This document shows positions 58,230-58,796 of a stretch of 64,000 nucleotides of DNA, piece by piece; position 1 is the first letter of the stretch; each line of letters opens with the position of its first letter. Both the position numbers and the translations under genes were made by a program. The notes beneath the pieces were generated by a model that was given only the letters and a program-made list of their open reading frames with translations, had not been told where the DNA came from and ran no database searches. Source of the stretch: Xanthomonas hortorum pv. cynarae (lineage in GTDB: Bacteria; Pseudomonadota; Gammaproteobacteria; Xanthomonadales; Xanthomonadaceae); the NCBI RefSeq assembly GCF_002939985.1, contig NZ_MDFM01000017.1, positions 1 to 64,000 of the forward strand, read 5' to 3'.

Positions 58230-58391
58230 TCCACACTGCAGCTGCGCAAGCCATTGCATCGCGTGCACGGGCGGCTTGCATTGAACGACGCGGCGGTGAG
58301 CGGCTACGCGATCCACTGCGGCATCAGCACGGGCGCTGCGTTGACGCGGCCCTTGCTGCAACAGGACGACGGCCGCGCCATTGGACGATGA
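58230..58391 (+). pseudogene. cobQ: Remnant of cobyric acid synthase (CobQ/CbiP) C-terminal glutaminase-like region
   Basis: A short frame reads STLQLRKPLHRVHGRLALN, then VSGYAIHCGISTGAALTRP and LLQQDDGRA. This matches the region of CobQ/CbiP around the conserved GYEIHxG motif. It stops after IGR, where the sequence switches into cobU-like coding, and the rest of the roughly 480-residue protein is missing on the 5' side. It is a decay product, not a gene. It lies 40 bases after btuB, in the position where other xanthomonads appear to keep a longer cob gene set. Confidence 0.7.
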
Positions 58392-58796
58392 GATGCGCGC
58401 ACGCATCGCGCATCACCGCAGCCAATGCCCGCCACATTGGCAGTGCGTGGAAGAACCCATCGCGTTGGCTGCCCGCTCTTGCAGGCACTGGCCGCGCCCG
58501 ACCGCTGCGTGCTGGGGGATTGCCTAACGCTATGGCTGAGCAGCCTGCTGGGCGACCCGGATGCCGGCGTATTCGTGCGCGAGCGTGAAGCCTTGCTCGG
58601 CACCCTGCCGCAGTTGCCGGGGCAGATCGTGCTGGTCGGCAACGCGGTCGGGCAGGGCATCGTGCCGTTGGGTGAACCGACGCGCCGGTTTGTCGACGAG
58701 GCCGGTCTGCTGCATCAGACATTGGCGGTACAGTGCGAGCGCGTGGTGTTCGTCGTGGCCGGCTTGCCGATGGTGCTGAAAGGAGACGCGGTGTGA
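58381..58796 (+). pseudogene. cobU: Remnant of adenosylcobinamide kinase/guanylyltransferase (CobU), 5' truncated and frameshifted
   Basis: In one frame TAAPLDDEMRARIAHHRSQ and PPHWQCVEEPIALAA (58369-58473) match CobU after its P-loop. The frame then shifts near 58468-58476 and continues LLQALAAPDRCVLGDCLTLWLSSLLGD...QIVLVGNAVGQGIVPLGEPTRRFVDEAG...VVAGLPMVLKG to 58796. The start with the GxRSGKS nucleotide-binding site is missing, so no functional kinase can be made. An open frame from 58425 exists but begins in the wrong frame. Its end overlaps the cobT start. Confidence 0.85.

What the first reader, a model, noticed from the sequence alone, without database searches (positions are those of the whole stretch)
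58230..58796. cobQ and cobU remnants fused at a possible microhomology
CobQ-like coding (GYAIHCG ... LLQQDDGRA) and CobU-like coding (TAAPLDDEM) meet in different frames over the shared bases CGACGGCCGCGCC (58367-58379), which would fit the end of the first and the start of the second. A deletion by short-homology recombination would remove the end of cobQ and the P-loop of cobU in one step. A later shift near 58470 finished cobU. The genes expected between btuB and cobQ are also missing.
Basis: partly seen in the sequence, partly recalled or inferred. Interest (0 to 1): 0.7.

Follow-up and report, generated by a model that had tools for sequence, protein, structure and literature searches.

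The report
Decayed B12 cluster with surviving cobT

Summary
In detail: window 58230-58379 is a cobQ tail joined, out of frame, to a cobU that has lost its start and P-loop; a later frame change lies at 58473-58479, and the genes between btuB and cobQ are gone. The proposed mechanism fails. In the closest intact relative fetched (Xanthomonas sp. Leaf131) the 13 bases occur once, in cobQ. In 10 of 10 cobU copies examined, the best match near the other end has 5-6 mismatches. The join has 1 or 3 flush matching bases; 44% of random pairs have 1-3. A third deletion took the end of cobC and all of cobS.

The more notable fact is next door. cobT is intact (348 aa) in 10 of 35 Xanthomonas genomes, this one included, that have no CobS match and no complete CobU. 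Among the four that share this join, cobT changes are almost all silent (dN/dS 0.01-0.06), while adjoining remnants are much less constrained (0.25-1.0). In the family outside Xanthomonas, CobT and CobS occur in the same 64 genomes. Likeliest reading: a cobinamide-salvage cluster decayed to btuB plus cobT, with CobT kept for an activity that needs neither CobU nor CobS, so far unidentified.

The parts
55974..56196 (+). Cobalamin riboswitch (RF00174) ahead of btuB
   Evidence: cmscan 106.7 bits against gathering score 31.5
56313..58190 (+). btuB, intact TonB-dependent receptor, 625 aa
   Evidence: ORF; Pfam plug and beta-barrel; G031 ORF also 625 aa
58191..58230 (+). Deletion 1 junction: btuB-downstream sequence (homologous to other decayed relatives up to about 58221), then start of cobQ remnant; about 4.5 kb of the G031 cluster absent (DUF gene, cobO, cbiB, cobD, cobQ codons 1-363)
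   Evidence: alignment to L023 and other relatives
58230..58379 (+). cobQ remnant (CobQ residues about 364-412)
   Evidence: 85% DNA identity to G031 cobQ; tblastn E 2e-16; PF07685 weak match, E 0.013, under cut-off
58367..58379 (+). 13-base word CGACGGCCGCGCC, cobQ-derived; last cobQ bases before the join
   Evidence: identical in G031 cobQ; not found at the cobU end in 10 of 10 copies
58379..58382 (+). Deletion 2 junction cobQ|cobU (about 331 bases of G031 absent)
   Evidence: shared by G021, G022, G023
58381..58796 (+). cobU remnant without start and P-loop (CobU residues about 36-173), frame change between 58473 and 58479
   Evidence: tblastn; PF02283 pieces
58780..58785 (+). Shine-Dalgarno-like AAGGAG ahead of cobT, inside the kept cobU tail; GGGAGA or AGGAGA at the same place in 12 of 12 genomes compared
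   Evidence: sequence; upstream comparison
58793..59839 (+). cobT, intact, 348 aa, GTG start overlapping the cobU stop
   Evidence: PF02277 418.7 bits; 348 aa in 26 of 26 full-length copies; dN/dS
59836..60024 (+). cobC (alpha-ribazole phosphatase) remnant in two pieces
   Evidence: DNA homology to G031 ends at 60024; tblastn of CobC residues 4-82 runs on weakly to 60083, E 1e-21 for the two pieces
60024..60042 (+). Deletion 3 junction: end of cobC and all of cobS absent
   Evidence: alignment to L023 9362 and 10543; no PF02654 match in the whole genome

Best explanation
The window carries the relic of a Xanthomonas cobinamide-salvage cluster (btuB, DUF gene, cobO, cbiB, cobD, cobQ, cobU, cobT, cobC, cobS, behind a cobalamin riboswitch). 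Three deletions and small later frame changes destroyed every cobamide-assembly gene in it except cobT. The cobQ|cobU join is one deletion of about 331 bases with 1-3 matching bases at the ends, so most likely an ordinary illegitimate deletion (end joining or replication slippage) rather than recombination at a 13-base repeat. It happened once, in the ancestor of four related genomes. CobT is still expressed from its own ribosome-binding site downstream of btuB, and selection keeps it as an enzyme (nicotinate mononucleotide plus base giving alpha-ribotide plus nicotinate) although CobU and CobS are gone. SHOWN: the deletions, their sharing, no CobS match, no complete CobU, intact cobT and its strong constraint relative to the remnants. 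INFERRED: the deletion mechanism, expression, catalytic activity, and that the activity is useful without cobamide assembly, for example by making alpha-ribotides or by nicotinate release.
For: Anatomy against G031. Shared join in four genomes; the same four form one clade (100/100) with G031 as sister in the btuB tree (100/99) and the cobT tree (97/92). No repeat at the ends. CobS absent and CobU incomplete. CobT full length without any CobS match in 10 of 35 genus genomes. Within the four genomes cobT dN/dS is 0.011-0.062 (Jukes-Cantor corrected); remnants cobQ 0.52-1.03 and cobU 0.25-0.91 (uncorrected). Silent against amino-acid-changing counts are 59:6 in cobT and 16:35 in the remnants for one choice of two disjoint pairs, Fisher p 2e-11; the other two choices give 2e-8 and 4e-8. 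dS of cobT (0.09-0.12) is close to that of btuB (0.10-0.13) in the same pairs, as expected for vertical descent. Outside Xanthomonas the same 64 family genomes have CobT and CobS over the cut-offs. The active-site motifs GGEMGIGNTT and LRLGEASGA are present in the window and align to the Salmonella enzyme.
Against: cobU remnant dN/dS is as low as 0.25-0.28 in two of six pairs, so the remnants are not cleanly neutral. CobT is dispensable in the long run: no match in G003, G019, G020, G029, G033 and the incomplete G028, only a fragment in G014. G022 CobT carries T181I in the conserved GIGNTT loop. The clpB tree puts G031, which has CobS, among the four (forks 94/85 and 82/38), against the btuB and cobT trees. 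In the arboricola group the losses have different ends, so some of that cobT history may predate loss. No genome has BluB over the cut-off, so the usual base would have to come from outside. No expression or activity data.
Confidence: 0.75

Rival explanations
1. Recombination between two copies of a 13-base repeat.
For: The 13-mer abuts the join and matches cobQ 13 of 13 in G031.
Against: Absent from the cobU side in 10 of 10 copies, best match 5-6 mismatches; the shared 6-base word near both ends is within chance (30% of random pairs reach 6 or more) and is not flush with the join.
Confidence: 0.03
2. Short microhomology deletion at CCGCGC followed by a second loss of three bases at the join.
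For: CCGCGC lies within a few bases of both ends in G031.
Against: Needs an extra event; word length is within chance; all four carriers compared show the same short join.
Confidence: 0.2
3. cobT is only a slowly decaying relic: the losses are recent, or spread recently by recombination, and its constraint was inherited from before the loss.
For: cobU remnants keep partial constraint in some pairs; CobT is lost altogether in several relatives; the clpB tree conflicts with the btuB and cobT trees over G031, a sign of recombination or weak signal.
Against: The join is shared by four genomes with cobT dS of 0.09-0.12 and 25-31 silent but only 1-5 amino-acid differences per pair; btuB and cobT trees and dS agree with vertical descent; adjoining remnants in the same genomes changed more freely.
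Confidence: 0.25
4. CobT still serves cobamide assembly, with CobU and CobS functions supplied by unrecognised enzymes in the genome.
For: MetH (34 of 35), the riboswitch (33 of 35) and a PduO-type adenosyltransferase (35 of 35) suggest that the genus still uses cobamides.
Against: No CobS-family match in any of the 10 genomes; outside the genus CobT and CobS are found in the same 64 genomes.
Confidence: 0.12

Closest known systems
Cobinamide-salvage (nucleotide-loop assembly) clusters: btuB-DUF-cobO-cbiB-cobD-cobQ-cobU-cobT-cobC-cobS of Xanthomonas sp. Leaf131
   Same: Riboswitch, btuB and cobT; remnants of cobQ, cobU, cobC in the same order
   Different: Three deletions; only btuB and cobT intact
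CobT, nicotinate-nucleotide:dimethylbenzimidazole phosphoribosyltransferase (PF02277; solved as 1jh8 and 1d0s, which I recall as the Salmonella enzyme, and 1j33/1wx1)
   Same: Full-length match, active-site motifs present
   Different: No CobS match and no complete CobU in the genome to use its product
ArsA/ArsB (CobT homologues that activate phenolic bases; 4hdk)
   Same: Same superfamily
   Different: Single gene here; lower similarity than to CobT (159.6 and 131.4 against 260.2 bits for the best CobT)

Membership tests
CobT (PF02277) | Full-length domain over the curated cut-off | tested here: met
   418.7 bits against 22.6, residues 13-345
CobT (PF02277) | Active-site glutamates (E174 and E317 of the Salmonella enzyme; numbering recalled) | tested here: met
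   Window GGEMGIGNTT begins at 172 and LRLGEASGA at 312; both glutamates align to glutamates of 1jh8
CobT (PF02277) | Catalytic activity on NaMN and a base | not testable with these tools
   needs an assay
Cobinamide salvager | Complete CobU | tested here: not met
   Only CobU 33-67 and 69-173 in separate frames, no P-loop start; PF02283 pieces only in the whole genome (its first piece, 58309-58473, runs into cobQ-derived DNA and holds a stop)
Cobinamide salvager | CobS | tested here: not met
   No PF02654 match in G000
Repeat-mediated deletion | Same 13 bases at both ends in an intact relative | tested here: not met
   0 of 10 cobU copies
Pseudogenes (cobQ, cobU) | Truncation or frame change plus relaxed constraint | tested here: met
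   for cobU the constraint is only partly relaxed
Pseudogene (cobC) | Truncation plus relaxed constraint | tested here: inconclusive
   Truncation shown; constraint not measured

The most novel reading that the evidence does not exclude
In several Xanthomonas lineages CobT has taken on, or always had, a second role that needs neither CobU nor CobS: a riboswitch-linked btuB-cobT pair that makes alpha-ribotides (for release, signalling or another nucleotide-like product) or returns nicotinate, and so outlives the whole pathway under strong purifying selection.
Probability: 0.4. Interest if true: 0.7.

Novelty: new variant of a known kind. Interest (0 to 1): 0.5.

Why it matters
The deletion itself is ordinary gene decay. 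The surviving CobT matters because its established role (recalled) is to feed CobS; if selection keeps it where CobS and CobU are gone, CobT does something else in cells. That would change how partial cobamide pathways are read from genomes, and these small btuB-cobT loci make the question directly testable.

Tried and rejected
Rejected: the 13-base repeat; a significant microhomology of 6 bases (within chance); horizontal replacement of cobT as the source of its constraint (btuB and cobT trees and dS agree; the clpB tree disagrees by placing G031 among the four, forks 94/85 and 82/38, which I take as recombination at clpB or lack of signal, not tested). Led nowhere: BluB search gave weak matches in 34 of 35 genomes, none over the cut-off. 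An error of mine: the cobQ piece scanned (58229-58378) was in the wrong frame, so its lack of a match says nothing; one search repeats it in the right frame and finds PF07685 under the cut-off. Literature: no report of CobT kept without CobS was seen in the listings, nor in the passages seen of PMC6461909 and PMC9296465; no paper was read whole, and most subscription papers are not in that library.

Dropped rows: of 29 genus genomes with a PF02277 match, G008, G027 (cobT split in two frames) and G014 (fragment) were left out of the 26 full-length copies. The dN/dS median for CobS-bearing copies used 13 of 16; G007, G009 and G024 were left out. label G009 as CobS-bearing although its CobS is in pieces. 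The btuB tree used 21 genomes (window plus the 20 loci), the cobT tree 26, the clpB tree 30 of 35. The 13-mer test used 10 of the 20 loci, those with the cobU site; G013 (cobU in two frames) and G009 (no cobQ tail there, CobS broken) are among them, so not every one is an intact cluster, and the cobQ-side line for G009 is not meaningful. Handles were retyped for the set comparison.

Full report
What is there. The window lies on contig C17 of a 5.06-Mb genome whose relatives are Xanthomonas; by equal contig length G021 is X. hortorum jj2001 and G031 is Xanthomonas sp. Leaf131. A cobalamin riboswitch (55974-56196) precedes an intact btuB (56313-58190). Then come pieces of cobQ (58230-58379) and cobU (58381-58796), an intact cobT (58793-59839), and a cobC remnant up to about 60024; beyond about 60042 the sequence matches what lies downstream of cobS in G031.

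Comparison with an intact relative. G031 has btuB, a DUF gene, cobO, cbiB, cobD, cobQ, cobU, cobT, cobC and cobS in a row. Against it the window lacks three stretches: about 4.5 kb from after btuB to cobQ codon 363, about 331 bases from the cobQ end through the cobU P-loop, and about 1.2 kb with the end of cobC and all of cobS. CobU, CobT and CobS were identified by Pfam and the cobQ piece weakly so (PF07685, under its cut-off); the other gene names are my assignments from the translations and general knowledge of the pathway.

The proposed 13-base microhomology. The join is the same in G000, G021, G022 and G023, so it is most simply one event in their ancestor. In G031 the 13-mer is present once, in cobQ at L023 7378. 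At the cobU end G031 reads ACCGCGCAAGCCTTC, and the best match to the 13-mer within about 40 bases has 5 or 6 mismatches in 10 of 10 loci. The single base between cobQ-like and cobU-like sequence varies among the four genomes and fits the wobble position of the next cobU codon; this is inference. Counting matches flush with the join gives 1 or 3, depending on where that base is assigned; among 20,000 random position pairs 0 is commonest (10,481), and 1, 2 and 3 together make 8,880. The longest word shared within 15 bases of both ends, CCGCGC, has length 6; 30% of 5,000 random pairs reach 6 or more.

The later shift. The frame change lies between 58473 and 58479. It is not in G021 or G023, and G022 has its own length change there. 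So cobU decayed further, separately, after the deletion.

The surviving gene. CobT is open and 348 aa in 26 of 26 full-length copies from 35 Xanthomonas genomes. Ten of these genomes (G000, G001, G002, G004, G005, G010, G016, G021, G022, G023) have no CobS match at all and no complete CobU: G001 has no match, the others pieces or a broken frame. Three of the ten are assemblies of 1, 2 and 5 contigs, so missing data are unlikely to explain it. The ends of the deletions differ between the group of this window, the arboricola group and X. cannabis, and CobS-bearing G031 is sister to the four in the btuB and cobT trees; unless G031 regained the genes, at least two separate losses follow. The clpB tree places G031 among the four instead.

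Selection. Within the four genomes sharing the join, pairwise cobT counts are 25-31 silent and 1-5 amino-acid changes, dN/dS 0.011-0.062 (Nei-Gojobori, corrected). In the same pairs the cobQ remnant has dN/dS 0.52-1.03 and the cobU remnant 0.25-0.91 (uncorrected). Pooling two disjoint pairs gives 59:6 against 16:35, Fisher p 2e-11; the other two pairings give 2e-8 and 4e-8; with the cobQ piece alone p is 3e-6 to 6e-5. These tests treat changes as independent. cobT dS (0.09-0.12) is close to btuB dS (0.10-0.13) in these pairs. The five arboricola-group copies give 0.037-0.107, and 13 CobS-bearing copies have a median of 0.058; because the arboricola losses have different ends, part of that history may predate loss. 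Against a clean story, the cobU remnant is not fully relaxed in two of six pairs, and six genus genomes have no CobT match, with a fragment in one more.

Context. In 296 genomes of the family, CobT and CobS over the cut-offs are found in the same 64 genomes outside Xanthomonas; of the Xanthomonas drawn there, 17 have a CobT and 13 a CobS match. CobT without CobS thus appears only in Xanthomonas in this sample. MetH is in 34 of 35 genus genomes, the riboswitch in 33 of 35, a PduO-type adenosyltransferase in 35 of 35, BluB over cut-off in 0 of 35. So these bacteria probably use cobamides and take them up, and do not make dimethylbenzimidazole by BluB. MetE was not searched.

What it may do. CobT transfers phosphoribose from NaMN to a base (recalled for the family). 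The product has a known use only through CobS (recalled). Alpha-ribazole has been matched by mass formula outside cells and is taken up by a bacterium (PMC9296465, passages seen), so release or exchange is conceivable, as is nicotinate return. None of this was tested. PMC6461909 (passages seen) describes cobinamide salvagers as containing the nucleotide-loop assembly steps; the ten genomes here do not fit that category.

Verdict. Observation confirmed; decay interpretation right; the 13-base mechanism not supported; the neighbouring orphan CobT is the part worth following.

Noticed in passing
window 59880-59943: Inverted repeat with 26-nt arms (92% complementary, 12 nt apart) inside the cobC remnant; the right arm is extended only in the window, while G021, G022 and G023 have a shorter version, which looks like template-switch (quasipalindrome) mutation.
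   Followed up: partly
G015:C9:21517-21758, G020:C1:290933-291176, G019:C1:691038-691281: A second cobalamin riboswitch elsewhere in three Xanthomonas genomes.
   Followed up: no
G008:C52 and G027:C1 cobT: cobT is split into two frames in two genomes that do have CobS matches; sequencing error or decay in another order.
   Followed up: no
L178 (G022 cobT): T181I in the otherwise conserved GGEMGIGNTT loop, one of 26 copies.
   Followed up: no
L031-L036, after btuB: Arboricola-group genomes show several different deletion ends between btuB and cobT; G003 has no cobT match at all, so the locus decays repeatedly.
   Followed up: partly
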